DNA from: Argonema antarcticum A004/B2
GTDB lineage: Bacteria; Cyanobacteriota; Cyanobacteriia; Cyanobacteriales; Aerosakkonemataceae
Direction: 5' to 3'
Length of the DNA: 64,000 bases
Assembly (NCBI RefSeq): GCF_023333585.1
Contig: NZ_JAIQZN010000003.1
Coordinates: 6,954-70,953 of the forward strand
Under the pieces are notes generated by a model. The model saw only the letters and a program-made list of their open reading frames with translations, did not search any database and was not told where the DNA came from. Positions within the stretch are counted from its first letter, which is position 1. Every line of letters starts with the position of its first letter. The translations under genes were made by a program, and so were the position numbers. Below are positions 1 through 12,394 of this stretch, piece after piece.

Positions 1-740
1 TTGAGTTGATCCACCATTGTGTTGACGGTGTTTTTCAATTCCAGGATTTCGCCTTTAACATCTACTGTAATTTTTTTAGATAAATCGCCATTTGCTACTG
101 CTGTGGTGACTTCGGCAATATTCCGCACTTGGGCTGTCAAGTTGCCTGCCATCATGTTGACGGAATCGGTGAGATCTTTCCAAGTGCCTGCTACGCCTTT
201 CACTTCTGCTTGGACGCCCAATTTGCCTTCTGTTCCCACTTCTCTTGCCACCCGCGTTACTTCTGAGGCAAAGGAACTTAGCTGGGCGACCATTGTGTTG
301 ACAATTTGCGCGGTTTGAAGGAATTCTCCTTTTAAGGGTCTGCCTTCAATTTCTGTTGGGATGGTTTGGGATAAATCGCCATTGGCAACAGCTCGGATCA
401 CGCGAGCTGTTTCAGCTGTTGGCTGCACTAAATCTGTAATTAGTGTATTGACAGAATTAACGCTTTCTGCCCAGGAACCGCCAGCGGAACCCAAGGAGGC
501 TCTTTGAGTAATTTTGCCGTCTTTACCAACAACGGTGCTAACCCGCTCTAGCTCTTTGCTCATCCTTTGATTGAGTTCGATGATGTCGTTGAGCGTATCG
601 GCTATTTTCCCTGCTATGCCTGTCTTGTCGATCGGCATCCGCGCACTAAAGTTACCTTTCTTAACAGATACGAGTATTTTCAGTAGTTCTTTTGTATCCA
701 AGTTATCGGAGTTATCTTTGGGTAATTGTTCGGTTTGCAT
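1..740 (-). CDS. Multi-HAMP signalling protein, N-terminal part (cut by window edge)
   Basis: The frame is open on the minus strand from an ATG at 740 and runs off the window, giving about 246 residues. It begins [13 protein letters not shown] and has no signal peptide or membrane segment. From about residue 20 it consists of successive HAMP-like units, each carrying a variant of '[17 protein letters not shown]' followed by '[12 protein letters not shown]'; at least three units are visible. Cytoplasmic proteins with HAMP arrays are known as the amino half of large hybrid histidine kinases (Nik1/group III type, common in cyanobacteria), where the HAMP ladder passes conformational signals to a histidine kinase core. 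The kinase and receiver domains would lie outside the window, so that part is inferred. It is divergent from nothing: the next gene at 1193 is also on the minus strand, 450 bases upstream. Confidence 0.85.
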
Positions 741-773
741 AACTTTATCCTCTCTGCGGTTATTATTGTTTTT

Positions 774-894
774 ATGACTTACGCAACTGGCACATTTAGG
801 GTGCGTCAAAAGCGGAAACCCTTATTCTATCAATCTATAACTTCGTCTGACGCACCCTAGAAGTTGATTTAAGTGTGTCACTTGCGTAAGTCAT
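774..894. repeat. MITE-like element, 121 bp, with terminal inverted repeats
   Basis: The ends read ATGACTTACGCAA and TTGCGTAAGTCAT, a 13-base perfect inverted pair. A second, inner inverted pair follows (GGGTGCGTCA and TGACGCACCC). There is no coding capacity. The form fits a non-autonomous miniature transposable element that folds into one long hairpin. It sits just upstream of the multi-HAMP gene. A related end, GGACTTACGCA, is seen near 55304. Confidence 0.7.
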
Positions 895-1192
895 GTTTTA
901 TACAGCCCAGTCAGCAGAGCTTACGCTCGATCGCTCGTCGGTTCCAAAACTAAAGGGGGAAGTTACCTATTTGGCTAATGAAAGTTCAGATATTAGGGTT
1001 AACGATCGAATTTTGGCTCTATCTAGGGGTAGTTTAAAATCTTTCTCTGGATAGAAGTTACCTGGTGGAGTCTAAACAGTAAGAAGGGGCTAGGGACTAG
1101 GGGCTAGGGATAAGGGGGACAAGGGGGATACTGTCTGCCAACGAACTACATATCACCGCACCCGTCCCCACTCAGCACTAAAGCCGAAGCAC
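895..1192. other. Spacer without a gene
   Basis: No convincing open frame is seen. Positions 1085-1128 hold a short G-rich tandem stretch of 'GGGGCTAGGG' type, one of the dispersed spacer repeats of this genome. Positions 1164-1193 hold a 'CACTCAGCACTAAAGCCGAA' type stretch that recurs near 35090 and, in variant form, inside the hybrid kinase gene near 41250. Confidence 0.6.
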
Positions 1193-1735
1193 TCAAGAAG
1201 GTTTTTGTTCAAAGCTGGGAGCATAAGCCTCCAGCAGAGAACTCACCTGTTTGAGTACATCTCTCCCTGTGCTTTTGCCTAGAGCTTGGCGGGTAGGGTC
1301 TAATTCCGGTTGCTCTAAGTTACGGGCTATAGCCTCGTTGACTTGTTGGGTAATTAAATCTTGAAGTGCTTCTTTAGCACGCTGGCGCTGATAATTGGCC
1401 CCTTCTTCGGTAGTGGCATACAACGGAGGCAGTCGGTTGAGGGCGTAAGCGGCAATGTCGCCGACATCAAGGACGCGATCGCTAGTGGCTTCTATTTGGG
1501 CTGCCCGTGAGATCGCTTCTGAGAGGACCAACTCTTCCATAACGTTAATGAACTGCTTGCGCGGTACTGCAACGACTTCTCCAGTTAAGAGCGATCCCAT
1601 CAGCCGATCCAAGGCCATATATTCTTCTATAGAAAGCTCTGCGGCAGTGTCGCAGATACGTGCCACTTCCGCTTCCATAGCTGGCGTCAGATAACCATCA
1701 TGTAGCGCCTGTTCAACGATTTTTTCGATACTCAT
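1193..1735 (-). CDS. ComFB-family protein
   Basis: The product is 180 residues if it starts at the ATG at 1735 (MSIEKIVEQAL). A longer open frame to 1855 would overlap the upstream peptidase gene and adds a non-conserved leader, so the shorter start is preferred. The N-terminal half has the late-competence ComFB pattern: a helical start, then 'LDRLMGSLLTGEVVAVPR', then 'NVMEELVLSEAI'. The middle has 'LNRLPPLYATTEEGANYQRQ', also typical of the family. Known family members in cyanobacteria bind cyclic dinucleotides, including the cell-size regulator CdgR, so a c-di-GMP or c-di-AMP receptor role is plausible here but inferred. The gene follows the M23 peptidase by 28 bases and is probably cotranscribed with it. 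A GGDEF-EAL protein is encoded at the other end of the window, far from this gene. Confidence 0.82.
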   Translation of the reverse strand: MSIEKIVEQALHDGYLTPAMEAEVARICDTAAELSIEEYMALDRLMGSLLTGEVVAVPRKQFINVMEELVLSEAISRAAQIEATSDRVLDVGDIAAYALNRLPPLYATTEEGANYQRQRAKEALQDLITQQVNEAIARNLEQPELDPTRQALGKSTGRDVLKQVSSLLEAYAPSFEQKPS

Positions 1736-1763
1736 AAGTTTATTTTTGGGAAATCCGTAAGCT

Positions 1764-2723
1764 CTATTCGATTCCTTGAATCCGCCAAGGCGTTGGGTCA
1801 ACGCACTCTCCGTTAACATACAATCCCCAGTGTAAATGAGGCCCTGTGGACGCACCCGTAGAACCTATGGCACCGATGACTTGACCTGGCCCGACGATAT
1901 CTCCTTCCTGTACGTTGATGCGGCTCAAGTGCAGAAAGATGCTGGTTACGCCTTGACCGTGGTCGATGCCGATCGTATTGCCATGCAGTCGGAAGCCTTC
2001 AGAAACTCTTCCTACCAAGGCTACTCGACCGGCTGCCGGAGCAACTACTGGTGAACCATATCCACCAGCGTAATCCACGCCGCGATGGTAGTAGTCTTTA
2101 GCAAAGACACCGTTGTAGTAGCGGCGCACTCCGTAGATGCTGCTGATTCTACCCCGATTTGGTGCCATCAAGGGGCCATTCCAGTATTTTTCTGGGGTGA
2201 TCAGTTTTTTGAAGGCGCTTACCCGGTTAAGTTCATGCTGTGTCGGTTCGGTTCCCCCTCCAGATAGGCGGATGCGTTGGGTGGGAAATGCGCGTCCGGC
2301 TACCTGTACTGTAAGGTTTTGTACCTCATCCCCTGCCTTAACTTGGATTTGGCGAATTCCAGGTGTCTCTAGGGGTGTGGTGGGGATTAATGCGCGAAAG
2401 TTATTCGATCGAATTAAAAAAGTCTGGTAGATCTTATCGCCGACTTTCACGGTGGGAGTACTGCTAAGTGCCGGATTCTGCTGTATGACCACCGACAGGG
2501 TATCGCCTAGTTTGGGATTGGCTGGTGTCACCTGCACCTCTTGGGCGCGTACTGAGCTGACCAGGATAGCAAGACCGATCGCGAATGCTACGCTTATAAT
2601 CTTTGCGTCCCAACCATTCCGGCGTCGTGGCGCTTTTAAAAGAGGTGAGGAGGGCTCTAGCGCCCCAGACCATAAACTTGCTAGCTTTTTCCACAAATAT
2701 CTTGATTGACGCCAGGTACTCAT
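1764..2723 (-). CDS. M23 (LytM-type) metallopeptidase, exported
   Basis: The product is 319 residues from ATG 2723 (MSTWRQSRYLWKKL). The frame stays open to 2765, but the extra codons lie in an AT-rich spacer repeat, so the downstream start is chosen. A hydrophobic segment at about residues 40-58, ending in 'SSVRAQE', acts as signal peptide or anchor. The middle is a beta-rich region. The C-terminal 120 residues are a lysostaphin-type peptidase domain with the zinc motifs 'HRGVDYAGG' and 'HLHWGLYVNG' and an additional 'FLHLS'. Such enzymes cut peptide cross-links of peptidoglycan outside the cytoplasmic membrane. Two minus-strand genes (hfq upstream, comFB-like downstream) are co-oriented. 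Whether it acts in elongation, septation or junction drilling cannot be told from sequence. Confidence 0.9.
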   Translation of the reverse strand: MSTWRQSRYLWKKLASLWSGALEPSSPLLKAPRRRNGWDAKIISVAFAIGLAILVSSVRAQEVQVTPANPKLGDTLSVVIQQNPALSSTPTVKVGDKIYQTFLIRSNNFRALIPTTPLETPGIRQIQVKAGDEVQNLTVQVAGRAFPTQRIRLSGGGTEPTQHELNRVSAFKKLITPEKYWNGPLMAPNRGRISSIYGVRRYYNGVFAKDYYHRGVDYAGGYGSPVVAPAAGRVALVGRVSEGFRLHGNTIGIDHGQGVTSIFLHLSRINVQEGDIVGPGQVIGAIGSTGASTGPHLHWGLYVNGECVDPTPWRIQGIE

Positions 2724-2850
2724 AACAATTTTAGATTTTAGATTGGGGAATTGGGCATGGGGCATTGGGAAGAGGATTTCAAATTTTAGATTTCCGATCG
2801 CAAATTGAAATAAATCTCAAATCTCAAATCTCAAATTCCCCTCTTCTCTT
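2724..2850. repeat. AT-rich dispersed repeats
   Basis: The spacer holds copies of 'TTTTAGATTTTAGATT' (2729-2744) and 'AAATCTCAAATCTCAAATCT'-type runs (2812-2834). The two are near reverse complements of each other and can pair. The same family recurs at many gene boundaries in the window. Confidence 0.7.
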
Positions 2851-3063
2851 CTATTTGGGCTTTACGTATGCGATCGCGTGTCGCCAGACGATGGACGATT
2901 CATTGTTTTCATCGACCACGCCAATGCAGAATTGATCTTGCCAGAGAATCTGTCCGTTTAGTGTTTCCCCACTGATGAGTTTTACTTCGGCTTGTTTTTG
3001 GTCTTTAATCATTGACTGAATTTGACGAGAGCTTGGTAGCCCAGTATCGAATCCGGTAGGCAT
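2851..3063 (-). CDS. hfq: Cyanobacterial Hfq-like RNA-associated protein
   Basis: The product is 70 residues, the usual length for cyanobacterial Hfq. It shows the Sm-like fold pattern: 'PSSRQIQSMIKDQKQAEVKL' at the start, 'TLNGQILWQDQFCIGVVDE' as Sm1, and the closing 'SSIVWRHAIAYVKPK', which replaces the enterobacterial 'YKHAI' Sm2 motif. In Synechocystis this protein has poor RNA binding and acts through the pilus motor PilB1, being needed for motility and transformation; a similar role here is inferred from family membership. The gene is divergent from dapF with 119 bases between the starts. An AGGAG-like site (rc of 'tctgctcctttt') lies just before the ATG. Confidence 0.92.
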   Translation of the reverse strand: MPTGFDTGLPSSRQIQSMIKDQKQAEVKLISGETLNGQILWQDQFCIGVVDENNESSIVWRHAIAYVKPK

Positions 3064-3182
3064 AAGTCTGCTCCTTTTTACATAATTTCCAGTAGGGGCG
3101 GGTTTTACGAGGATGTTGCTGAGTATGCAAGATATGCTCGTATACAGTACCGACCGCTTTCATCACTTTTGAGGATAATTTA
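3064..3182. promoter_or_regulatory. Divergent spacer between hfq and dapF
   Basis: These 119 bases separate two outward-facing genes and must hold both promoters unless transcripts start farther away. It contains 'AGTAGGGGCGGGTTTTA' (3091-3107), a member of the dispersed 'GTAGGGGC' repeat family. A 'GAGGATAATTTA' stretch precedes the dapF ATG and includes its ribosome binding site. Confidence 0.45.
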
Positions 3183-4022
3183 ATGGCAATCGAGTTTACT
3201 AAGTATCACGGGCTGGGAAATGATTTCATTCTGATTGATAATCGCACTTTATCGCTTCCAGTGCTGACGCCGGAGGAGGCTATAAAGTTGTGCGATCGCC
3301 ATTTTGGTATCGGTGCTGATGGTGTAATTTTTGCCCTAAAAGGACAAGATGGCACGGACTATACGATGAGAATTTTTAACTCGGATGGCTCTGAACCGGA
3401 AATGTGTGGCAACGGTATCCGCTGCTTAGCCCAGTTTATCGCTGAATTAGAGGGAATCTCAAGTCAGGATAGCGAATATCGCATTCACACTCTCGCTGGG
3501 GTAATTACACCGAAATTGCGTCGCGATGGTCAAGTTATTGTAGATATGGGACTACCTCGACTGCTAGCTGCTGAAATTCCGACTACGCTTTGTTCCGGCG
3601 ACGAGAAAGTGGTTAACCAGCCTTTGGAAGTGGATGGAAAATCTTGGGATGTCACTTGCGTCAGTATGGGCAATCCTCACTGTATAACGTTTGTGGAGGA
3701 TGTGGCAGCTATTCCTTTAGAAACTGTTGGGCCGAAGTTTGAGCATCACTCGGTTTTCCCTCAACGCACAAATACGGAATTTATTCAAGTGGTTGGACAA
3801 GATTATCTGAAGATGCGGGTGTGGGAACGCGGTGCTGGGGTAACTTTGGCTTGCGGGACGGGTGCTTGTGCTGCGTTGGTTGCTGGGGTGCTGACGGGAA
3901 GATGCGATCGCAAAGCGACTGTTGAATTACCTGGTGGCCCTCTGGAAATTGAATGGTCGGAGGTTGACGGGCGAGTTTACATGACTGGGCCAGCCGAGAA
4001 AGTTTTCACAGGAAAGATTTAG
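3183..4022 (+). CDS. dapF: Diaminopimelate epimerase
   Basis: The product is 279 residues and full length for the family. It converts LL-diaminopimelate to the meso form, used for lysine and for the peptidoglycan stem peptide. Both catalytic cysteines are present: C75 in 'EMCGNGIRC' and C224 in '[10 protein letters not shown]'. The start '[16 protein letters not shown]' is the standard N-terminus of the family, and a GAGGA site lies seven bases before the ATG. The two-lobed repeat typical of the enzyme is visible. The gene is divergent from hfq and followed by a REP-like hairpin rather than another gene, so it is probably monocistronic. Confidence 0.97.
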
Positions 4023-4060
4023 CATTAACGTACATTTTTCCCCATCAACCCGAAATAGCC

Positions 4061-4124
4061 TGTAGGGGCGGGTAACCCTCCTAATTCGATTTTAATATTG
4101 ATATTTTAGTTAAACCCGCCCTTA
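4061..4124. repeat. REP-like hairpin after dapF
   Basis: GGGCGGGT at 4066-4073 pairs with ACCCGCCC at 4114-4121 across an AT-rich loop. The left arm belongs to the 'TGTAGGGGC' repeat family seen also near 3091, 11406, 37803 and 55338. It may terminate or stabilise the dapF transcript, but there is no clear U tract. Confidence 0.55.
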
Positions 4125-4209
4125 TACAGTTTTAAATTTAAGAAAGCTGCCAAATTGGGCTATAGCAATCCTATATTAACTCGAAAATGCGATCGCCATA
4201 AAAATATGA

Positions 4210-4404
4210 CCCACTTTAGCCATTATTACCCCAGATGGTCAATGGCAGGAATTAGACAATCATGTAGCTATAGAAGCTACTGCGAAAATGCTGAGGGGAG
4301 ATACAACAATAAGTGAAGAATAAGCAAAATGGGAGCGTCAAGTTCGGGGAATTTTAGCAAGTTACCCGGATTATCTTGCTGTCGCTTTAGACTGCCACAT
4401 TTGA
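4210..4404 (+). pseudogene. Decayed fragment of an unrecognised small gene
   Basis: One frame reads PTLAIITPDGQWQELDN and continues in protein-like sequence to an in-frame TAA at 4321-4323. It then resumes as AKWERQVRGILASYPDYLAV and ends at a TGA at 4402-4404. A TGA also stands immediately before the first codon, so no start remains. The text looks like former coding sequence rather than random spacer, but I do not recognise the family. The rest of the 4023-4486 spacer holds no other gene. Confidence 0.45.
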
Positions 4405-4486
4405 GCTTGTTAGTGCAAAGATTATTTTAGATATTATCAGCCAGATCGATCTATTGATTGGCCTCAATTGGCAATTAGTTTTAAGC

Positions 4487-5251
4487 TTACTCTGGCACCT
4501 GAAGATCATCAAGGAAACAACGAATAAACTTCCCATAAGCTTCTTTCATAGGCAATTCATCATCCACCTTAATTCGGCGTCTTTTCGCCACAACAGTTTT
4601 ATTTTCAATGGGATTGTAACCTTCTTTCTCATATTCTTCCCAATATAAACCAACTCCTCGCCGTTGCCAAGTTGGTAAATCGTTAAAATTAATCCCATTT
4701 TGAAATAATAATTCGTTTTTGAACGCTACCGACTTATTTTCAAGCGCTGCTGTTGCTTCGGTAACACTTCGACCGGCTTTTCGTAATGTCCAATAACACC
4801 AACCATTCAAGGCGCAACGGGTAGCATCTGCTTGACGCCAGCGGAAATAATCAACTACTTGAGATTTATTTGCACCCAGCCAAACGCGGCTATCAAAATT
4901 TACTATAGTTTGTGCGGCGTGGGTAAATGTGGCGGTGGCGATGCTGGCAGAAATGGAAACAATCTTTTCGAGACTGCGATCGAAAAAATCCCAGTCTGGA
5001 TTGAACAGCACCGAAATTTCATCGCTTTCCGTATAAGCATAAATGCCTTGGAGTTCTTCCAGCAACGCTTTGGCAGTTTGTACCATCAGTTCGTGGAATT
5101 TGGGGTCAAAAGGCTTCTGGTAGCGAGACTCGGTAAAACGCGAAAAACCTCGTCCATCTAGGCGAACTACTGTCCAAGCGCCTGGTAACAGGCGCAGGGA
5201 GTGGAAATATTCCAGCGATCGCATTTGCTTTTCAAAATTATCGTTATCCAT
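4487..5251 (-). CDS. Thg1-like 3'-5' nucleotidyltransferase (TLP)
   Basis: The product is 254 residues. The fingers-palm pattern of the Thg1 family is clear: 'VVRLDGRGFSRFT' carries metal ligand D32, and 'AYTESDEISVLF' carries D77 and E78. The 'HINNLYNT' block of eukaryotic tRNA-His guanylyltransferase is absent and replaced by 'DATRCALNGWCYWTLRKAG', as in bacterial and archaeal Thg1-like proteins. Known TLPs add nucleotides in the 3' to 5' direction to repair truncated 5' ends of tRNAs; in bacteria the G-1 of tRNA-His is normally encoded, so repair is the more likely role. The start overlaps the last 8 bases of the kinase-like gene upstream, pointing to translational coupling and a shared task. 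The exact RNA substrate is unknown. Confidence 0.88.
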   Translation of the reverse strand: MDNDNFEKQMRSLEYFHSLRLLPGAWTVVRLDGRGFSRFTESRYQKPFDPKFHELMVQTAKALLEELQGIYAYTESDEISVLFNPDWDFFDRSLEKIVSISASIATATFTHAAQTIVNFDSRVWLGANKSQVVDYFRWRQADATRCALNGWCYWTLRKAGRSVTEATAALENKSVAFKNELLFQNGINFNDLPTWQRRGVGLYWEEYEKEGYNPIENKTVVAKRRRIKVDDELPMKEAYGKFIRCFLDDLQVPE

Positions 5252-5717
5252 GCTCTACCTCATTTTCCTTCCACTCCGCCACCTCAAAATTTGAGTCATC
5301 AGTCATCTGGACGTAGAAAAGCCGATCGAAACCTTCTGCATAAGAGGGGCGTATTAGCTTTTTAATTGTGACGTAAATCCCCACATCCGGCACCCGCGCC
5401 TTACCAGATCGTTGCTGGTTGCGATCGAGGCATTGCTTGATATCCGATTCACAGTAATAACCGATAATTTCAGCACCGTACATTTTGCCAAGCTGAATTA
5501 GCGATGCGCGATCTTCAAGGGTTGGGTTGGTATTATCTACAACTACCGATCGGCCCTTCTCAAGTGCAGCTTCAATCAACTGTGTCTGTCTTCTAGCGCG
5601 GTTCTTGTTATTACGAATCAAATCTTTGCTGACAATCTCGTGGGTTGTCGCGAAATGAGTGCGAAAAAATGTACTTTTTCCAGAAGCTTGCAAGCCGATA
5701 AAAATGACTAACTGCAT
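5244..5717 (-). CDS. P-loop kinase resembling the 5'-kinase part of T4 polynucleotide kinase
   Basis: The product is 157 residues. The P-loop is 'GLQASGKST' (residues 8-16), followed by 'SKDLIRNN' and 'VVVDNTNPTLEDR', then the lid-like 'CLDRNQQRSGKARVPD'. This order matches the AAA/zeta-like small kinases that include the T4 Pnkp kinase domain. Such enzymes phosphorylate 5'-hydroxyl ends of RNA or DNA, but related proteins use other small substrates, so specificity is uncertain. It is the first gene of a two-gene unit, its end overlapping the Thg1-like gene. Together they could rebuild damaged tRNA 5' ends: the kinase supplies the 5' phosphate that Thg1-family enzymes activate. That joint role is inference. 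Confidence 0.8.
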   Translation of the reverse strand: MQLVIFIGLQASGKSTFFRTHFATTHEIVSKDLIRNNKNRARRQTQLIEAALEKGRSVVVDNTNPTLEDRASLIQLGKMYGAEIIGYYCESDIKQCLDRNQQRSGKARVPDVGIYVTIKKLIRPSYAEGFDRLFYVQMTDDSNFEVAEWKENEVEHG

Positions 5718-5845
5718 AGCTTATCGGCTCCGAAAAGTGGTGAAATTTGATATCTTTTACCACAGATGAACGCAGATGTAGATCTAGATTGATGGTGGAA
5801 TAGGTTTTCGGTATTGACGCTGCGTTAATGCACCCTAATCAAAAC

Positions 5846-7756
5846 TCAAAACTGTAACTCTTCGATCGCGCCTGTTAAACCATTGCTGTTGATTTTTTGG
5901 AGCATTTCCTCAGCTTCTTGACGATCGCGATAAGCGCCCACCTGCATCATCACGCGACCGTTAGCACGAGTCTGAAAAGCGCCGGGAACGATCGATCGCA
6001 CCAGTCTCTGCTGACGCGGACTCTCTACCTCCACGACTACGCGGTAACGCAAACCAAGCGCTACAGCACGATTGGGCACCGAACGCGGGGTAGGAGGGGC
6101 AGAGTAATTGCGTTGTTGCTGGCGGGGATTATCTTGAGATATGGCTACCATCGGCAGGTTATTATCGGTGTTTGCCATCGGAATTTCAGAACCGGGAACA
6201 GGGAGTAGACCCGCTTCCACCCCTGGGTTGGGCAGCGTACCTCTGCCTTGCCTTACAGGTTGTACCGAACCAAAATTCCCTCGTGTGCCTTCTTCTCTTG
6301 TAGAGGGAAAAGAGGGGAGTGGTTGGGATGCCCTCTGGGATTCAGGGGTAGGGATAGAGGAGGTAATTTCTAATGCGCCTGTTTGACTGGTAGAGGGCAA
6401 TACCGGAAGTGTCCTAGAGTCGCGACGCTGCACTCTTGGTTGAGTTTGATTCACCTGCACAGGCTGTATTTGAGATGTTGCTGGCGGGGGGACTGGAATT
6501 TCTACAGCGGTATTTGATGGGAAGCTATTTGTCGATCGCGTTCCCCTAGAACTTAGAATCGGCGAGACAACTGTCGGCGGTGACTGTGAAGCCGTGACTT
6601 CGACAGGAGTTGGGGGGGCTGTTCCCGCCAGATCCAGGCGTCCGGTAGTACGATTCCTAGCTAGTTGATTGCCAAAAGCTGGGATGGTTTGGCTGGAAGT
6701 TTTGCCATTGATATCAAGGCGGCGATTGTTGCGAAAAATATTGGCTCCCGGTTGCTGGGCCGTTCCCAGATCGGGCCGTGCTTCGCCGATCGCAACTATT
6801 CCATCTCGGCTGTTTCCCTCAATTGTATTACCGCGCAAAACAGGTTGCGCTTTGTTTTGAACTACTATGCCATCTAGGTTTTGGGTGATGCGATTGCCCA
6901 CTAGCAACGGTGCCGCATTTTGACCGATGTTAATCCCAAATCCAGTTTTCTCAAATACATTTTCCCGCACTTCTGGCCGCGAGGTATTGTAAATAGTAAT
7001 TCCATTCGCCCCATTCTCAGAAAAATAATTGTTGCGAATCAGAGTCGCACTGTTGCCAGTAACTGAGATGCCGTCGTGGCTGTTACCGATAAAAGTATTG
7101 TCGGCTACCACCGGACTACTGGATTCTATCCACAAACCATAGCCTCTTCGGTTGGTATTGGTTACTGTCACTCCGGTAATTCCGGCTTTGTCTGCCCCCA
7201 GAATGGCGATGTTTTGGCGGGCGAAGGTGGGGCTGATAAAAAGACCGCCGCCTTTGATGATGATATTTCTGCCTTTGCTAGCGGGGTCGCCCTGAATTGT
7301 CACACCGGGTTTTAGCGTAATTGGAAAGGTTTCGCCAGTTTCTTCGCTATAGGTGCCCGGTGCAAGCACGATCGCAGTATTTGGCCCTGCTACCCGCAGT
7401 GCTTGGGTAATGGTTTTGAAGGGAGTGCGATCGCTGCCGTTGCCAGTAGTATCGTTACCAGTAGTGGGATTAACCAATAACTGGGTTGTTTCTGATTTTG
7501 CTGGCGTTTCATCTCTACTCTGGGCTAGTTGCTGGGATACAGTTTCCGCCTGCGCCGGGGTTTTACCCAAGGCTAGGGTGACTGCGGTTGCTAGTATTGT
7601 AGCGATCGCAACTGCATCTCTGGCTAATGCTAGAGTCCAAAATTGTCTCTGCTGGCCTTGGTTTGCCAATTTTGCCCTCATTTTAGGCGGGATGCTGATA
7701 TCCAACTGGATTGCGGATAAAATTTGGCGATGGAAGCAAGGATGTCTTAAATTCAC
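5846..7756 (-). CDS. Exported DUF1565/parallel beta-helix protein with C-terminal SPOR-like domain
   Basis: The product is 636 residues, starting at GTG 7756; an AGAGAGG site seven bases upstream supports this start over the internal ATG at 7681. Residues about 40-70 form a signal segment ending in 'PAQAET'. Residues about 90-160 are a DUF1565 block ('NGSDRTPFKTITQAL', 'VLAPGTYSEETGETFP'), followed by about eight turns of a right-handed beta helix rich in 'N.I..N..DGI.V' units to about residue 370. A long Pro/Ser/Thr-rich linker leads to a C-terminal segment 'GRVMMQVGAYRDRQEAEEML' of the SPOR type, which in known proteins binds denuded peptidoglycan. An envelope or surface role is therefore likely; enzyme activity (lyase-like) is not proven. 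It stands alone between the kinase pair and thiDE. Confidence 0.8.
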   Translation of the reverse strand: MNLRHPCFHRQILSAIQLDISIPPKMRAKLANQGQQRQFWTLALARDAVAIATILATAVTLALGKTPAQAETVSQQLAQSRDETPAKSETTQLLVNPTTGNDTTGNGSDRTPFKTITQALRVAGPNTAIVLAPGTYSEETGETFPITLKPGVTIQGDPASKGRNIIIKGGGLFISPTFARQNIAILGADKAGITGVTVTNTNRRGYGLWIESSSPVVADNTFIGNSHDGISVTGNSATLIRNNYFSENGANGITIYNTSRPEVRENVFEKTGFGINIGQNAAPLLVGNRITQNLDGIVVQNKAQPVLRGNTIEGNSRDGIVAIGEARPDLGTAQQPGANIFRNNRRLDINGKTSSQTIPAFGNQLARNRTTGRLDLAGTAPPTPVEVTASQSPPTVVSPILSSRGTRSTNSFPSNTAVEIPVPPPATSQIQPVQVNQTQPRVQRRDSRTLPVLPSTSQTGALEITSSIPTPESQRASQPLPSFPSTREEGTRGNFGSVQPVRQGRGTLPNPGVEAGLLPVPGSEIPMANTDNNLPMVAISQDNPRQQQRNYSAPPTPRSVPNRAVALGLRYRVVVEVESPRQQRLVRSIVPGAFQTRANGRVMMQVGAYRDRQEAEEMLQKINSNGLTGAIEELQF

Positions 7757-8118
7757 AGTTAGCCTCTCTTTGTCTTTATAGGTTAAAGGTTGCTTGTATG
7801 GGAAAATGTCAGGTGTGTTAATTTCTTTCTTTACACCCTACACCCTTTTTCAGATGCTGATTGTGGGAGTTAACGGGAAAAGTCAGAAGGTTGATGTGAC
7901 TGTCAACAGGGGAAGCAGATTCTTTGAGAAGAATCTGAATAATATTCAGATTTTCCGGTAAAATCGTTGCACCAGCAGCAGTGGCTTTCAAATCCAGACC
8001 TAAGAATCCAACTTAGTAACTGTGGGATTCTCAAAACGATCTTAGTTTGGAAGGTGGGTTTTCCCCACCAATACAAAGCCCGTGCTAGTGACGCGCAAAT
8101 AAGATTGGAGTTGTTTCG
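7757..8118. other. Spacer before thiDE with two overlapping hairpins
   Basis: No gene is seen on either strand. At 7916-7937 a 9-base perfect stem (CAGATTCTT / AAGAATCTG) with a TGAG loop is followed by an overlapping palindrome CTGAAT-AAT-ATTCAG at 7935-7949; only one of the two can form at a time. A CTGAGA-type thi box, the mark of a TPP riboswitch, is not found. A GGAG site lies close before the thiDE start. Confidence 0.45.
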
Positions 8119-9228
8119 ATGGGCGATCGACATGAGCCATATAGGCCATTCCCAAACTTGCCCGCACAAGCACAGCCTGCTGTTTGCCGGATCTTAGATG
8201 CCAACTTGGACCGATCGCGCGAAGGTTTGCGGATCGTGGAAGAGTGGTGTCGTTTTGGTCTGGATAGCACTGAGTTGGCTGGGGAATGCAAGCAATTACG
8301 GCAGGAAATAGCTGGATGGCATACTCTCGAACTACGGGCTTTTCGAGATACCACCGGCGATGTCGGCACAGAGTTAACTCATCCCCAAGAAGAACAACGT
8401 GCTGGTATTGAGCAGTTGTTACAGGCTAACCTCTGCCGAGTTGAAGAAGCACTGCGGGTTTTGGAAGAGTATGGCAAGCTTTACTCGCCAGATATGGGTG
8501 TGGCGTTTAAACAAATGCGCTATCGGGTCTATACTCTGGAAAGCAATTTGCTGGGCTACCAGCGTCACCAGAAGCTGATCCGCAGTTACCTGTATCTCGT
8601 CACTTCGGCTTCAGAAAATCTGTTTGCTATTGTGGATGCAGCCCTGCAAGGGGGGTTAACTTTAGTGCAGTACAGGGATAAAACGGCAGATGACGATCTC
8701 CGTTTAGAAGCAGCGCAGAAACTGTGTCAGCTTTGCCACCGCTACAACGCGCTATTTATTGTGAACGATCGCGTAGATTTGGCTTTGGCGGTGGATGCGG
8801 ATGGGGTACATCTGGGACAGCAGGATATGCCTATAGCCCTAGCCAGACAGTTACTTGGCCCCCATCGCTTGATCGGTCGTTCTACCACCAATCCCGATGA
8901 AATGCAGCGTGCTCTAGCAGAAGGTGCCGACTATATCGGCGTCGGGCCAGTATACGAAACCCCCACAAAAGTGGGCAAAGCTGCCGCCGGATTAGAATAC
9001 GTCCGCTACGCCGCTCAGAATGCCTCTATACCCTGGTTTGCCATTGGCGGCATCGAACCGAGCAATTTAAACGATGTGCTATCAGCAGGCGCAGAGCGGA
9101 TCGCCGTGGTTAGATCCATCATGGAGGCAGAACAGCCAACTTTAGTCACTCAGTATTTCCTCTCTCAGTTAACTCGCCTGCAAACCCTGCGAGCTTTTAA
9201 AGCACAGCTGCCTCAGTCTCATGTCTAG
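8119..9228 (+). CDS. thiE: Thiamine-phosphate synthase with N-terminal ThiD2 domain
   Basis: The product is 369 residues, much longer than a stand-alone ThiE (about 210). Residues about 20-145 match the ThiD2 domain ('RILDANLDRSREGLRIVEEW', 'NLCRVEEALRVLEEYGKL'), known to phosphorylate HMP-phosphate. Residues about 155-360 are ThiE: 'LYLVTSA', 'LVQYRDKTADD', 'LFIVNDRVDLALAVDADGVH', 'LGQQDMP', 'GADYIGVGPVYETPTK' and 'IGGIEPSN'. ThiE couples HMP-PP with the thiazole phosphate to give thiamine phosphate. The fusion is common in cyanobacteria. It overlaps thiS by 8 bases, so the pyrimidine-activating, coupling and sulfur-carrier steps are made from one message. Confidence 0.93.
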   Translation: MGDRHEPYRPFPNLPAQAQPAVCRILDANLDRSREGLRIVEEWCRFGLDSTELAGECKQLRQEIAGWHTLELRAFRDTTGDVGTELTHPQEEQRAGIEQLLQANLCRVEEALRVLEEYGKLYSPDMGVAFKQMRYRVYTLESNLLGYQRHQKLIRSYLYLVTSASENLFAIVDAALQGGLTLVQYRDKTADDDLRLEAAQKLCQLCHRYNALFIVNDRVDLALAVDADGVHLGQQDMPIALARQLLGPHRLIGRSTTNPDEMQRALAEGADYIGVGPVYETPTKVGKAAAGLEYVRYAAQNASIPWFAIGGIEPSNLNDVLSAGAERIAVVRSIMEAEQPTLVTQYFLSQLTRLQTLRAFKAQLPQSHV

Positions 9229-9433
9229 TCAAATAACTCTGCAAGTAAATGGGGAATCCCGTACCTGCGCCGACCAAACAAAGCTACCCCATTTGCTAGA
9301 ACATCTCGGTTACAATCCCCGCCTAATTGCCGTAGAGTACAACGGCGAAATCCTACACCGACAGTTTTGGAATGAAACTCAGGTGCAGGAAGGCGACAAT
9401 ATTGAAGTTGTCACCATTGTCGGCGGCGGCTAG
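9221..9433 (+). CDS. thiS: Thiamine sulfur carrier ThiS
   Basis: The product is 70 residues with the beta-grasp ubiquitin-like pattern: 'ITLQVNGESRT' at the start, 'LLEHLGYNPRLIAVEYNGEI' in the middle and the tail 'VEVVTIVGGG'-like 'EVVTIVGGG'. The C-terminal Gly-Gly is adenylated and thiocarboxylated to donate sulfur for the thiazole ring; the extra third glycine is usual in cyanobacterial forms. The ATG lies inside the end of thiE (8-base overlap). The partner enzymes ThiF and ThiG are not in the window. Confidence 0.94.
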   Translation: MSSQITLQVNGESRTCADQTKLPHLLEHLGYNPRLIAVEYNGEILHRQFWNETQVQEGDNIEVVTIVGGG

Positions 9434-9764
9434 TTAGATTTTAGATTTTGGATTTTGGATTTTCGATTTGTGTTTACAGCCCTTTTCACGTGAGTGAGGG
9501 ACAAAGAAACCCGGTTTCTTGAAGAAACCGGGTTTCTGGTTGGTACTTTTGCCCAAAAAACCGGTTTTCCAGCACAAACAGAGGGATAACCTTTCTCTCT
9601 TTTGACTTTTGACTTTTGACTTTTGACTTAAAGTACGGATATCTACCCAGCTATCCGCCCTGAGATAGCTACCCAGCGAAGATGCTAGGCGCTAAATTAG
9701 AAATGTGTAAAGATACGTTAACAAAAATTTGCACAACACCCAGAAACTACAGTATTTCTTTGAG
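9434..9764. repeat. Spacer with perfect AGAAACCCGGTTTCTT palindrome and tandem heptads
   Basis: At 9505-9537 two 16-base arms (AGAAACCCGGTTTCTT and its exact complement) flank a single base. It is the most perfect copy of a repeat found also at 52119-52152 and 57096-57114. Positions 9597-9630 hold tandem 'TTTTGAC' units and 9434-9470 the 'GATTTTGGATTTTGGATTTT' type. No gene is seen; an upstream TTG at 9729 keeps the next frame open but is not preferred. Confidence 0.7.
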
Positions 9765-10733
9765 ATGAGTTGGAATAAGCTTCGTTATATGTACAAGAAA
9801 CTACTCTCAACTATTAAACCGCTTCTCAAACCCATGCTAGTTGCTGGCCTCATGCTAACCTTGGCACTTGGTCACGCTGATGGAGCTTTGGCCGCTCGCA
9901 CTGGAGGCCGGATTGGCGGCGGTTCTTTTAGTGTACCCAGTCGCGGTTACTCGTCTCCCCGTACCTACGCACCACCATCTGGAGGATATTATCCCTATGG
10001 CGGTGGTGGATTTGGGTTCCCCTTTCTGATTCCATTTTTTGGGATTGGGGGCGGGTTTGGCGGTCTATTCAGTATCCTGATTTTTATTGGGATTGCCAAC
10101 TTCCTGGTGCAAAGCTTCCGTCGCATCGGTAGCAGTGAAAATACCGAACTCGGAAACAGCAGCAATCCTGCCGTTTCCGTAGCGCGTTTGCAAGTGGGTC
10201 TGCTGGCTAATGCTCGCAACTTGCAAAAGGAACTCAATCAAATTGCTGAAGCTGCCGATACGGGTTCTCCCCAAGGTCGCGCCGAAGTTTTGCAGGAAAC
10301 AACTCTCGCTTTGTTGCGCCACCCCGAATTCTGGGTTTATGCTGGTAGCGAAACTCAGCAGGCTCGGTTAGAATCGGCTGAAGCTCAGTTTAACCGCTTG
10401 TCCCTGGGAGAACGCAGCAAATTTACATCAGAAACTCTGTCAAATGTCAATAATGTTTTGAGGGAAGCTGAACCTCAGAAAGCTTTGCCGGGTGGAGAAA
10501 CTGAAGAACCGAGTCAATACATTGTCGTTACTCTTCTGGCGGCAAGTCTGAACAAGTTGCAATTGCCAACAATTAATAATTCTGACGAACTGCGTCAAGC
10601 GCTGCGCCAGTTTGGTGCTATTCCTAGCGAGCAATTGCTGGCGATCGAAGTTCTCTGGACGCCCCAAGCAGAAGGTGATACTCTCACCTCGTCAGACATG
10701 ATTGTCGAATATCCAAACTTGAAACTCGTTTAG
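9765..10733 (+). CDS. DUF1517 family membrane protein
   Basis: The product is 322 residues from ATG 9765 (MSWNKLRYMYKKLL); ATG 9789 is an alternative. The N-terminus has a hydrophobic signal segment ending 'HADGALAARTGGRIGGG'. A Gly/Tyr/Pro-rich stretch follows ('SGGYYPYGGGGFGFPF'), and then a second hydrophobic segment at about residues 105-130 ('LFSILIFIGIANFLVQ'). The C-terminal 200 residues are the conserved soluble part ('VARLQVGLLANARNLQKEL', 'YIVVTLLAASLNKLQLP'). This is the DUF1517 layout found in cyanobacteria and plastids (thylakoid or envelope proteins); the function is unknown. It is not clearly in an operon. Confidence 0.85.
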   Translation: MSWNKLRYMYKKLLSTIKPLLKPMLVAGLMLTLALGHADGALAARTGGRIGGGSFSVPSRGYSSPRTYAPPSGGYYPYGGGGFGFPFLIPFFGIGGGFGGLFSILIFIGIANFLVQSFRRIGSSENTELGNSSNPAVSVARLQVGLLANARNLQKELNQIAEAADTGSPQGRAEVLQETTLALLRHPEFWVYAGSETQQARLESAEAQFNRLSLGERSKFTSETLSNVNNVLREAEPQKALPGGETEEPSQYIVVTLLAASLNKLQLPTINNSDELRQALRQFGAIPSEQLLAIEVLWTPQAEGDTLTSSDMIVEYPNLKLV

Positions 10734-10809
10734 CCACAATTGAAGTTTAATGAGCCAGACAGGGGTTGGAGTTCAGCCCCTGTTTTGTAGATTTTTCCTA
10801 AAAAGCAAA

Positions 10810-11040
10810 CTATAGATCCGTAATTTTGCTAATTTCGGCTTTGCTATCCTGTACTTTAACTTCCCTAACCATCCAAATAGGCCACAACAAAGCCATCCAA
10901 AGCTTAGTTAACTTACTTGCATTGCGTTTTAATGCCGAAGGCTCAGAATATTGATTTAAATCGTTCCTAAAAGCTACATAACACACAGAACCTGAAAAAA
11001 AGTAAGCTGTTGCAGAATAGGCTAAGAGTATTGCAGTCAT
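10810..11040 (-). CDS. Small hypothetical membrane protein
   Basis: The frame encodes 76 residues. The first 25 (MTAILLAYSATAYFFSGSVC) form one hydrophobic segment, and a second, weaker one is around 'LWMALLWPIWMVREV'. An AAGG-type site is found 8-12 bases before the ATG, which supports translation. No family is recognised. It lies between the DUF1517 gene and a nest of repeats and could be a genuine small protein or chance. Confidence 0.4.
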   Translation of the reverse strand: MTAILLAYSATAYFFSGSVCYVAFRNDLNQYSEPSALKRNASKLTKLWMALLWPIWMVREVKVQDSKAEISKITDL

Positions 11041-11100
11041 CGTCAGTACCTTGTAAGCTATGAGTGTTTTTGTCGCGAGATAGACCGTCCAGCCTCAAAA

Positions 11101-11580
11101 AAATCGCCTCTTCCGTGCTTACTATGCTATTTGGGCAGAGGGGTAGGGGAGAAGAGAAATAAAAATGTTCTTAATTGAACAAAAGCATAGCAACTCCGAA
11201 AGAACCAGTATTAAGTGTAATTCCTGAATCTTTGGATTCCTCTGTTCCAGATTCTAGTAAATATACGGATTAGTTTATCCATAATTTTTCATTTGATTCT
11301 AGTTTTTACAATATCTTTGTCTAATCTTTATATAAACTTCATAAAACCAATGTTCAGGAATTCAGAATGCCTTAAGCGCCTTGGCGGTTGCTATATTTTT
11401 GATTTGTAGGGGCGAAGCATTCCGGTAAATATAGCAACCGCTCTCGTCGGTTAGGGCAACTCCAACTCTTACTTCTGGTTCATAATCCCTTACTCGGAGT
11501 TGTTATGCTTTTGTTCAAAAAAATCACATTTTTATTCCTCTGCCCCTCTTACCCCCGCCCCTCTGCCCTTCTGCGGCCTC
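11101..11580. repeat. Nest of dispersed repeats: two inverted copies around a hairpin
   Basis: Copy A (about 11107-11205, plus) contains 'CTTACTATGCTATTT' and later 'GAACAAAAGCATAGCAACTC'. Copy C (about 11493-11560, minus) is its reverse complement at about 80-90 percent by eye. Between them, GCGGTTGCTATATTT (11384-11398) pairs exactly with AAATATAGCAACCGC (11427-11441) around a 'GTAGGGGCGAAGCATTCC' core. A third copy of A, with the same order of blocks, lies at about 56938-57090. No gene is seen. Confidence 0.65.
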
Positions 11581-11584
11581 TAAA

Positions 11585-12394
11585 TCACTTCAGGCGTTTT
11601 TCTGTGCTTTGGTAACGGATGGATTCGGCTATCAAGAAAACTAATCCTGACACGAGCATAAGTACGACACTGAGGGCGTTGATGTCGGGTTTTACGCCGG
11701 TACGGATGCGGCTGTAAATTTCTAGGGGCAATGTAGTGGCGTCGCTACCGGCGGTGAAACTGGCAATCAGAAAGTCGTCTAAGCTGAGGACAAAAGCGAG
11801 GAGACAACCGGAGATAATACCGGGCATGAGTTGGGGTAGCAGCACTTTGATGAATGCTTGAAAGGGTGTGGCACCTAAATCGAGGGCGGCTTCTTCTAGG
11901 TGGGGGTTTAAGTCTGCGAGTCGTGTGGAAACAATCAGTCCGACGTAGGCGAGGCAGAAGACGACATGAGATGCCACAATTGTCCAGAGGCTAAGGCGAA
12001 TTTGAACTACTGCCAAAAATATGAGGGTGGCAACAGCGATCGCAATATCTGGAATAATCAGCGGCAGGTAGGAAATACCGCGATATAAGGATCTGCCGGG
12101 AAATCGGTAACGCGCTAAACCCACTGCCATCAGCGTGCCCACTACAGCTGAAACGCCCACGGCACAAAAAGCCACCGTCAAACTATTTTGCAAGGCAAAG
12201 AGAATGCGGGCATCGCTAAATAGCTTTTGATACCAGGCGAGGGTGAATCCCTCCCAACTAGCGCTATAGCGGGATTGATTGAAGCTGTACAAAGCGAGTA
12301 CCAGGATGGGCAGGTACATGAAAAAGAACATTAGCAGGGTGAAAAGCCCCTGCCAAAGGAAACCGCGTTGAACTCGCAATTGAGATTTGGCCAT
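11585..12394 (-). CDS. potC: Polyamine-type ABC transporter permease PotC
   Basis: The product is 269 residues with six predicted membrane segments. The permease loop signature is 'EEAALDLGATPFQAFIKVLLPQ', the EAA motif that contacts the ATPase. The opening 'LPILVLALYSFNQSRYSASW' and the segment 'LSLDDFLIASFTAG' are typical of PotC-type spermidine/putrescine permeases. It is the last gene of the cluster, 50 bases after potB. It would form the membrane channel with PotB in the cytoplasmic membrane. The exact polyamine cannot be read from the permease. Confidence 0.9.
   Translation of the reverse strand: MAKSQLRVQRGFLWQGLFTLLMFFFMYLPILVLALYSFNQSRYSASWEGFTLAWYQKLFSDARILFALQNSLTVAFCAVGVSAVVGTLMAVGLARYRFPGRSLYRGISYLPLIIPDIAIAVATLIFLAVVQIRLSLWTIVASHVVFCLAYVGLIVSTRLADLNPHLEEAALDLGATPFQAFIKVLLPQLMPGIISGCLLAFVLSLDDFLIASFTAGSDATTLPLEIYSRIRTGVKPDINALSVVLMLVSGLVFLIAESIRYQSTEKRLK

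What the first reader, a model, noticed from the sequence alone, without database searches (positions are those of the whole stretch)
4487..5717. Overlapping kinase and Thg1-like genes: possible RNA 5'-end repair unit
A T4-Pnkp-like P-loop kinase gene overlaps by 8 bases a Thg1-like gene that lacks the tRNA-His-specific HINNLYNT block. Thg1-family enzymes activate a 5' phosphate and add nucleotides 3' to 5'; cleavage by many nucleases leaves a 5' hydroxyl. A kinase that restores the phosphate followed by a reverse polymerase would make a logical two-step repair of damaged tRNAs.
Basis: partly seen in the sequence, partly recalled or inferred. Interest (0 to 1): 0.65.

Follow-up and report, generated by a model that had tools for sequence, protein, structure and literature searches.

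The report
RNA 5'-kinase with a Thg1-like reverse polymerase
Two overlapping cyanobacterial genes, a probable RNA 5'-end kinase and a polymerase of a type that builds RNA backwards, form a widely shared two-gene unit that probably mends damaged RNA ends, an idea first published in 2010.

Summary
In detail: a 157-aa P-loop kinase gene (5244-5717, minus) overlaps by 8 nt a 254-aa Thg1-like gene (4487-5251, minus). Sequence and predicted fold place the kinase with polynucleotide 5'-kinases. The Thg1-like protein keeps the catalytic residues; both tRNA-His genes found encode G-1, so G-1 addition seems redundant. The pair is conserved: in the order, 26 of 28 genomes with both have them adjacent, and 50 of 80 named-genome Thg1 loci (about eight phyla) have the kinase directly upstream. 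Flanks are otherwise unshared, so it is a two-gene cassette. In a few relatives it, or one half of it, lies among RNA-repair genes (Hen1-kinase-Thg1-Pnkp; RlaP with kinase-Thg1; RlaP-Thg1-RlaP; RlaP-kinase-RlaP). Association and repair idea were printed in 2010 (PMC2904730): a new member of a known kind. One correction: the kinase is not only Thg1's helper. In one genus Thg1 has lost its catalytic half while the kinase looks constrained, and other genomes have the kinase alone. I read the pair as the 5' arm of a modular RNA end-repair kit. I found no biochemical test of it.

The parts
5244..5717 (-). P-loop polynucleotide-kinase-like gene (157 aa), first gene of the pair
   Evidence: model pLDDT 87.5; nearest folds mammalian PNKP Z 17.7, CthPnkp 17.5
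4487..5251 (-). Thg1-like (TLP) 3'-5' polymerase gene (254 aa), second gene
   Evidence: nearest PDB chain 5axk Thg1-like protein, E 2e-34
5244..5251 (-). 8-nt overlap of kinase stop and Thg1 start (translational coupling is inferred)
   Evidence: of the same-strand kinase hits, 9 overlap Thg1 by 8 nt and 10 by 4 nt (most-upstream starts were used, so other overlaps are rough)
5673..5696 (-). kinase P-loop, residues 8-15; G8, G13 and K14 invariant in 76 of 76 aligned kinases
   Evidence: some organisms occur twice
5622..5624 (-). kinase D32, the position of the general-base Asp of polynucleotide kinases (role recalled); 76 of 76
5523..5537 (-). kinase DNTNP motif, residues 61-65; D, N and T in 75 of 76
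5156..5158 (-). Thg1 D32 = human D29 / BtTLP D30 (metal ligand); 112 of 113
5018..5026 (-). Thg1 S76-D77-E78 = human S75-D76-E77; 113 of 113
4799..4822 (-). Thg1 residues 144-151 (TRCALNGW), where human Thg1 has HINNLYNT
   Evidence: alignment

Best explanation
The pair is the 5'-end arm of a modular RNA end-repair kit. Step 1 (inferred): the kinase puts a phosphate on the 5'-OH of RNA fragments left by endonucleases that give 5'-OH ends. Step 2 (known for relatives, inferred here): the Thg1-like protein activates that 5'-monophosphate with ATP or GTP and adds missing nucleotides 3'-to-5', using the opposite strand (for example the 3' side of a tRNA acceptor stem) as template. The overlap couples translation of the two. 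The kinase also serves RNA healing without Thg1, in some genomes probably with RlaP nucleotidyltransferases (3'-end restoration) and a ligase. Shown here: gene pairing, conserved active sites, family and predicted fold, co-inheritance, linkage to RNA-repair genes in a few relatives, kinase persistence without Thg1. Not shown: any reaction, the RNA substrate, the stress that calls for it.
For: Order level: long Thg1 match in 35 of 195 genomes, strong kinase (E<1e-28, a cut chosen at the gap in the list) in 47, both in 28; Fisher OR 29.7, p 3.6e-15, kinship ignored. In 26 of those 28 the genes are adjacent on one strand (coordinates). HMM kinase upstream of Thg1 on the same strand, gap at most 231 nt, in 76 of 113 loci (L024 and L078 have a second, remote hit); 50 of the 80 named-genome loci. 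Distance correlation r 0.846 over 71 loci against a maximum of 0.17 in 2000 permutations. Flanking ORFs share no Pfam family in more than 3 of 93 scanned. RNA-repair company: G077 Hen1-kinase-Thg1-Pnkp; G050 RlaP-DUF6717-RlaP-(328 aa)-kinase-Thg1; Deinococcus plasmid kinase-Thg1, then DUF705, Hen1, RlaP, RlaP; G108/G125 RlaP-Thg1-RlaP; G176 RlaP-kinase-RlaP. Fold and residues. Both tRNA-His genes encode G-1. Bacterial TLPs prefer to repair 5'-truncated tRNAs and activate a 5'-monophosphate (passages).
Against: The kinase outlives Thg1: Thg1 remnants beside intact kinase genes in six genomes of genus g57; dN/dS 0.15 for the kinase against 0.72 for the remnant in the one pair measured; 11 genomes with kinase and no Thg1 match (G014 and G104 hold only split or truncated kinases). 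7 of 35 Thg1 genomes of the order, and 30 of 80 named-genome loci, lack a kinase hit next door (L048 ends at a contig edge; L072 and L110 have an ORF that blastp groups with the kinases). The DxxR arginine of T4/Cth Pnkp (role recalled) is not conserved: R in 24 of 76. PSTK is only 2 Z units behind the PNK group. The nearest neighbour agrees for the two proteins in only 34 of 71 loci. No Hen1 or Pnkp ligase in this genome, and I saw no other RNA-repair gene beside the pair in the window (ORF list of 1-12,000 read, not profile-scanned).
Confidence: 0.6

Rival explanations
1. The kinase is a general RNA 5'-OH healer that mainly feeds an RNA ligase or RlaP-linked pathway; Thg1 is an optional passenger and does not normally use its product.
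For: Kinase without any Thg1 match in 11 of 195 genomes and beside dead Thg1 in genus g57, with low dN/dS in the two pairs measured; RlaP-kinase-RlaP in G176; 8 of the 19 genomes with kinase but no long Thg1 match have strong RlaP.
Against: The tightest and widest neighbour of the kinase is Thg1, with overlap and co-inheritance; the genome-level RlaP association is weaker (OR 4.1). I did not search for ATP-dependent RNA ligases other than PNKP_ligase.
Confidence: 0.22
2. Thg1 here only makes or maintains tRNA-His G-1, and the kinase supplies a 5'-phosphate for that.
For: Several bacterial TLPs can add G-1 to tRNA-His in vitro (passage).
Against: G-1 is encoded in both tRNA-His genes found; 151 of 195 genomes of the order have no Thg1 match; RNase P leaves a 5'-phosphate, so no kinase would be needed (general knowledge).
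Confidence: 0.05
3. The kinase phosphorylates another substrate (an aminoacyl-tRNA like PSTK, a sugar, or a nucleotide-sugar like zeta) and the adjacency to Thg1 serves something else.
For: PSTK Z 15.7 and zeta Z 14.2 share the fold; Pfam KTI12 matches over its cut-off, PSTK models match below theirs.
Against: The best sequence and fold matches are mostly polynucleotide 5'-kinases, plus fungal entries titled only 'kinase' that I recall as tRNA-ligase kinase modules; in a few relatives the neighbours are RNA-repair genes.
Confidence: 0.08
4. The 5'-adenylylated RNA made by Thg1 serves ligation rather than polymerisation (one of the two alternatives printed in 2010).
For: Stated as a possibility in PMC2904730 (section 6); Thg1 catalytic residues are kept.
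Against: Characterised TLPs polymerise on 5'-truncated tRNA (passages).
Confidence: 0.05

Closest known systems
PNK-Thg1 predicted operon (Anantharaman, Iyer and Aravind 2010, PMC2904730; abstract, section 6 and passages seen)
   Same: Same two kinds of gene, same inference: kinase makes the 5'-phosphate that Thg1 uses; RNA repair
   Different: They report MACRO-domain and RNA-ligase neighbours; none was recognised beside the pair here. RlaP, Hen1-Pnkp linkage and survival of the kinase without Thg1 are not in the parts I saw; the additional file was not seen
Bacterial Thg1-like proteins (BtTLP, PMC3701042; M. xanthus TLP named in PMC6471195; passages of both seen)
   Same: Catalytic carboxylates and Lys kept; a Myxococcus xanthus relative (L061) is 62% identical and has this kinase upstream
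   Different: No activity data for this protein; I did not check that L061 is the assayed enzyme
Pnkp/Hen1 bacterial RNA-repair system
   Same: The kinase is homologous to the Pnkp kinase domain; in G077 the pair sits between Hen1 and Pnkp
   Different: No phosphatase, ligase or methyltransferase in this unit; the own genome has no Hen1_L or PNKP_ligase match
RlaP nucleotidyltransferases (PF10127)
   Same: Found flanking Thg1 or the kinase in some genomes; predicted to restore lost nucleotides before ligation (passage in PMC7824862)
   Different: The own genome has RlaP on another contig; no linkage in the window

Membership tests
Thg1-like protein (TLP) | Thg1 and Thg1C Pfam domains above curated cut-off | tested here: met
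   110.1 bits against 29.2; 56.4 against 26.3
Thg1-like protein (TLP) | Three metal-binding carboxylates (human D29, D76, E77) | tested here: met
   D32, D77, E78
   TRCALNGW at the aligned place
Thg1-like protein (TLP) | Template-dependent 3'-5' addition to 5'-truncated RNA | not testable with these tools
   Needs purified protein
Polynucleotide 5'-kinase (Pnkp kinase domain) | P-loop, catalytic Asp, DNTN motif and lid arginines (roles recalled) | tested here: met
   G8, G13, K14, D32 76/76; D61, N62, T63, R99, R103 75/76
Polynucleotide 5'-kinase (Pnkp kinase domain) | Nearest folds are polynucleotide 5'-kinases | tested here: met
   Rows for mammalian PNKP and CthPnkp Z 17.7-16.2; fungal kinases 17.4; PSTK 15.7; T4 Pnkp 14.2. 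A shared fold alone shows no function
Polynucleotide 5'-kinase (Pnkp kinase domain) | Substrate-contacting Arg of the DxxR motif (T4, Cth; recalled) | tested here: inconclusive
   R35 in the window; in the 76 aligned R 24, P 36, K 11
Polynucleotide 5'-kinase (Pnkp kinase domain) | Phosphorylates 5'-OH RNA | not testable with these tools
   Needs purified protein
NCBIfam bacterial Pnkp (TIGR04075) equivalog | Score above 750 bits over the whole 851-position model | tested here: not met
   53.4 bits, kinase domain only
PNK-Thg1 gene neighbourhood of 2010 | Adjacent, same-strand genes conserved across lineages | tested here: met
PNK-Thg1 gene neighbourhood of 2010 | MACRO-domain or RNA-ligase gene in a subset | tested here: inconclusive
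   Not among the 25 families shown of 57 in 93 neighbours; in G077 the downstream gene is Pnkp by homology, an 871-aa ORF
Hen1-Pnkp RNA-repair system | Hen1 and Pnkp present in the genome | tested here: not met
   No PF16542 or PF12623 match in G000, a draft of 249 contigs

The most novel reading that the evidence does not exclude
Bacteria rebuild broken RNAs from both sides before sealing: a kinase-Thg1 cassette refills the 5' side on a template while paired RlaP enzymes refill the 3' side, and these arms are swapped like modules (RlaP-Thg1-RlaP, RlaP-kinase-RlaP, Hen1-kinase-Thg1-Pnkp), making a gap-filling RNA repair system rather than simple heal-and-seal.
Probability: 0.3. Interest if true: 0.65.

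Novelty: new member of a known kind. Interest (0 to 1): 0.4.

Why it matters
What bacterial Thg1-like proteins do in the cell is an open question (passage: the biological substrates are not settled). A conserved partner that could make their 5'-phosphate substrate makes that testable: assay the two proteins together on 5'-OH truncated RNA. The RlaP, Hen1 and Pnkp neighbours in a few relatives point to the same kind of pathway.

Tried and rejected
Complementation by Pnkp: I asked whether actinobacteria with Thg1 but no dedicated kinase keep full Pnkp instead. PNKP_ligase is in 18 of 19 kinase-less and 19 of 19 kinase-bearing genomes that I chose, so there is no complementarity; the long-frame kinase hits (frames of 867-1389 aa in 10 of the 13 kinase-less genomes searched, plus a weak one in an eleventh) are not evidence for it.

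TrcR link: a cyanobacterial repressor controls rtcB and a tRNA array under translational stress (PMC10272220, passages). A 14-base part of its binding sequence is not near the kinase start; 4 matches in the window against 3.7 expected. Dropped. No Rfam family in the window at gathering scores; no terminator-like site and 7 promoter-like sites (3.8 expected) in 4000-6000.

Defence label: no PADLOC family for Thg1; one weak hit for the kinase (E 0.002). Not pursued.

Phage operons: two phage Thg1 loci inspected of 124 phage records; no annotated kinase or RlaP within 3 kb, though most neighbours are hypothetical.

RtcB is in 162 of 195 genomes of the order, too common to be informative.

Limits of counts: the 113 Thg1 loci include some organisms twice where the order sample and the named-genome scan overlap (for example L007/L037 and L014/L042), and 30 of them hold only about 1.5 kb on each side. 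Fisher tests ignore kinship. 'Long' Thg1 means one match of about 190 residues or more; G015 was put among fragments although a 225-aa ORF stands beside its kinase; in G151 Thg1 is split over two contigs and the piece beside the kinase was counted as adjacent. One search scanned 93 of 110 neighbouring ORFs; 17 were left out, among them the two RlaP ORFs of L042 and the NuiA and L111 ORFs, which were scanned (L042's downstream RlaP as the L014 stretch of the same contig). ORF starts are the most upstream ones. dN/dS values are single pairs by a simple counting method; in the kinase-only pair dS is 1.2, near saturation. Burroughs and Aravind 2016 (10.1093/nar/gkw722), the source of RlaP, is not held, so I cannot say which RlaP-Thg1 linkages it already prints.

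Full report
What is there. The minus strand of 4487-5717 carries two complete ORFs: a kinase (157 aa, 5244-5717) and a Thg1-like protein (254 aa, 4487-5251), sharing 8 bases. The next ORF upstream on the same strand (5846-7756, whose relatives match DUF1565) is 128 bases away. The genome (G000, 7.7 Mb, 249 contigs) has one Thg1 match and one clear copy of this kinase, plus a 30%-identical stretch in a 418-aa frame. dapF at 3183-4022 (named by recall) looks unrelated.

The Thg1-like protein. Pfam Thg1 and Thg1C are matched above cut-off. The nearest solved chain is a Thg1-like protein (5axk, E 2e-34); human Thg1 follows. D32, S76, D77 and E78 align with human D29, S75, D76, E77 and are kept in 112 or 113 of 113 aligned proteins; of the BtTLP equivalents, D30 and D75 bind the metals (passage). 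The HINNLYNT block is absent. Two tRNA-His genes were found, one in a tRNA array and one elsewhere; in both the base before position 1 is G, facing C73, so G-1 is encoded. A tRNA-His maturation role would be redundant.

The kinase. Best profile and PDB matches are kinase domains of bacterial and mammalian polynucleotide kinases. An AlphaFold2 model from 27 aligned sequences has mean pLDDT 87.5. Top structural neighbours are mammalian PNKP (Z 17.7, 1.7 A over 138), C. thermocellum Pnkp (17.5, 2.6 A over 145) and fungal kinases that I recall as tRNA-ligase kinase modules (17.4); archaeal PSTK follows at 15.7, zeta toxin and T4 Pnkp at 14.2. P-loop and D32 are invariant in 76 kinases, the DNT residues and lid arginines nearly so; the Arg of DxxR is not.

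Conservation of the pair. In 195 genomes of the order, Thg1 matched in 44 (35 with a long match). The kinase matched at E 1e-3 or better in 119, most of them weakly; 47 are strong (below 1e-28; the next is 4e-17). 28 genomes had both. In 26 of these 28 the genes are neighbours on one strand; in G144 they are 2.7 kb apart and in G024 on different contigs. Among 80 loci from named genomes, 50 have the kinase directly upstream; by their titles these include Cyanobacteria, Actinomycetes, Myxococcota, Planctomycetes, Armatimonadetes/Abditibacteria, Chloroflexi (Ktedonobacterales), Acidobacteria and Riflebacteria; a Deinococcus plasmid adds another phylum. Protein distances of the two genes correlate (r 0.846, 71 loci), although the nearest neighbour agrees in only 34 of 71. 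Around the pair nothing recurs: no Pfam family in more than 3 of 93 flanking ORFs. The two genes are therefore the unit. Between the window and its nearest relative both genes look constrained: dN/dS 0.35 (kinase, 84% identical) and 0.21 (Thg1, 93%).

RNA-repair company. In G077 the order is Hen1, kinase, Thg1, Pnkp, all on one strand with 14 nt between Hen1 and kinase and 150 nt before Pnkp. There Hen1 and Pnkp were named by similarity to the G185 and Deinococcus proteins; the Pfam domains were seen on the G185 proteins and on a part of the G077 Pnkp. In G050 it is RlaP, DUF6717, RlaP, an unnamed 328-aa gene (phrog_24943, labelled 'DNA polymerase'), kinase, Thg1. On the Deinococcus plasmid kinase and Thg1 are followed, after an opposite-strand ORF, by a DUF705 protein, Hen1 and two RlaP genes. 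In G108 and G125 Thg1 lies between two RlaP genes, the first overlapping it by 8 nt. In G176 the kinase lies between two RlaP genes and the genome has no Thg1 match. In Thiodictyon Thg1 and RlaP overlap on a plasmid near BREX genes. These are single cases: among the 113 Thg1 loci as first collected RlaP was found in 5 (four organisms), and G050 was added from a wider stretch. Genome-wide, strong RlaP (E<1e-40, 48 of 195) and kinase co-occur modestly (OR 4.1, p 1.5e-4); 14 of 195 genomes, the window's own among them, have kinase, Thg1 and RlaP.

What speaks against a closed two-step unit. In six genomes of genus g57 only a C-terminal piece of Thg1 was matched, beside an intact kinase. In the two read (G113, G130) the palm with its carboxylates is gone and the rest has an in-frame stop. 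Between these two, dN/dS is 0.15 for the kinase and 0.72 for the remnant (one pair, 162 and 100 codons). Eleven genomes have the kinase and no Thg1 match; one pair of these gives dN/dS 0.10 with dS 1.2. So the kinase seems to have work of its own. Conversely 7 of 35 Thg1 genomes lack a strong kinase.

What is already known. Anantharaman, Iyer and Aravind (2010, PMC2904730; [quoted passage not shown] The finding's interpretation is theirs. The listings of seven searches with Thg1 or guanylyltransferase words (one search showed 20 of 279) brought up no experimental test of the pair that I could recognise from titles and abstracts; the library holds only open-licence papers. A 2021 comparative study of jumbo phages places Thg1, RlaP and polynucleotide kinases among RNA-repair enzymes (passages).

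Verdict. A real pair with conserved motifs; a new cyanobacterial instance of a published association. The added points are the Hen1/Pnkp and RlaP arrangements and the evidence that the kinase outlives Thg1. Mechanism as stated in Best explanation, confidence 0.6; every enzymatic step is inferred from families.

Noticed in passing
G000 contig 230, about 13.4-16.8 kb (locus L181): A dense array of 28 predicted tRNA genes covering many anticodons, in addition to single tRNA genes elsewhere; resembles the stress-induced trn operon described in Anabaena (PMC10272220, abstract start and passages).
   Followed up: partly
L122, L133, L179, L198: Thg1 or the kinase with two RlaP genes of different length beside it (225-338 aa and 250-265 aa); tandem RlaP pairs recur in the order.
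   Followed up: partly
L179, L180, L183, L196: DUF6717 genes stand beside RlaP in several genomes, including the window's own; function unknown.
   Followed up: no
L123 3435-3800, L124 2917-3300: Shared deletion remnants of Thg1 behind an intact kinase in one genus.
   Followed up: yes
L107 7561-7947: A NuiA-like nuclease inhibitor gene directly upstream of Thg1 in a Gloeobacterales genome.
   Followed up: no
L046 6085-9202; L036: Thg1 between a HepT-like gene and an ATPase/Mrr-type protein in an Anaerolineales genome; Thg1-RlaP near BREX genes on a Thiodictyon plasmid.
   Followed up: no
phage collection: 124 phage records carry a Thg1 relative; no annotated kinase within 3 kb in the two inspected.
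   Followed up: partly
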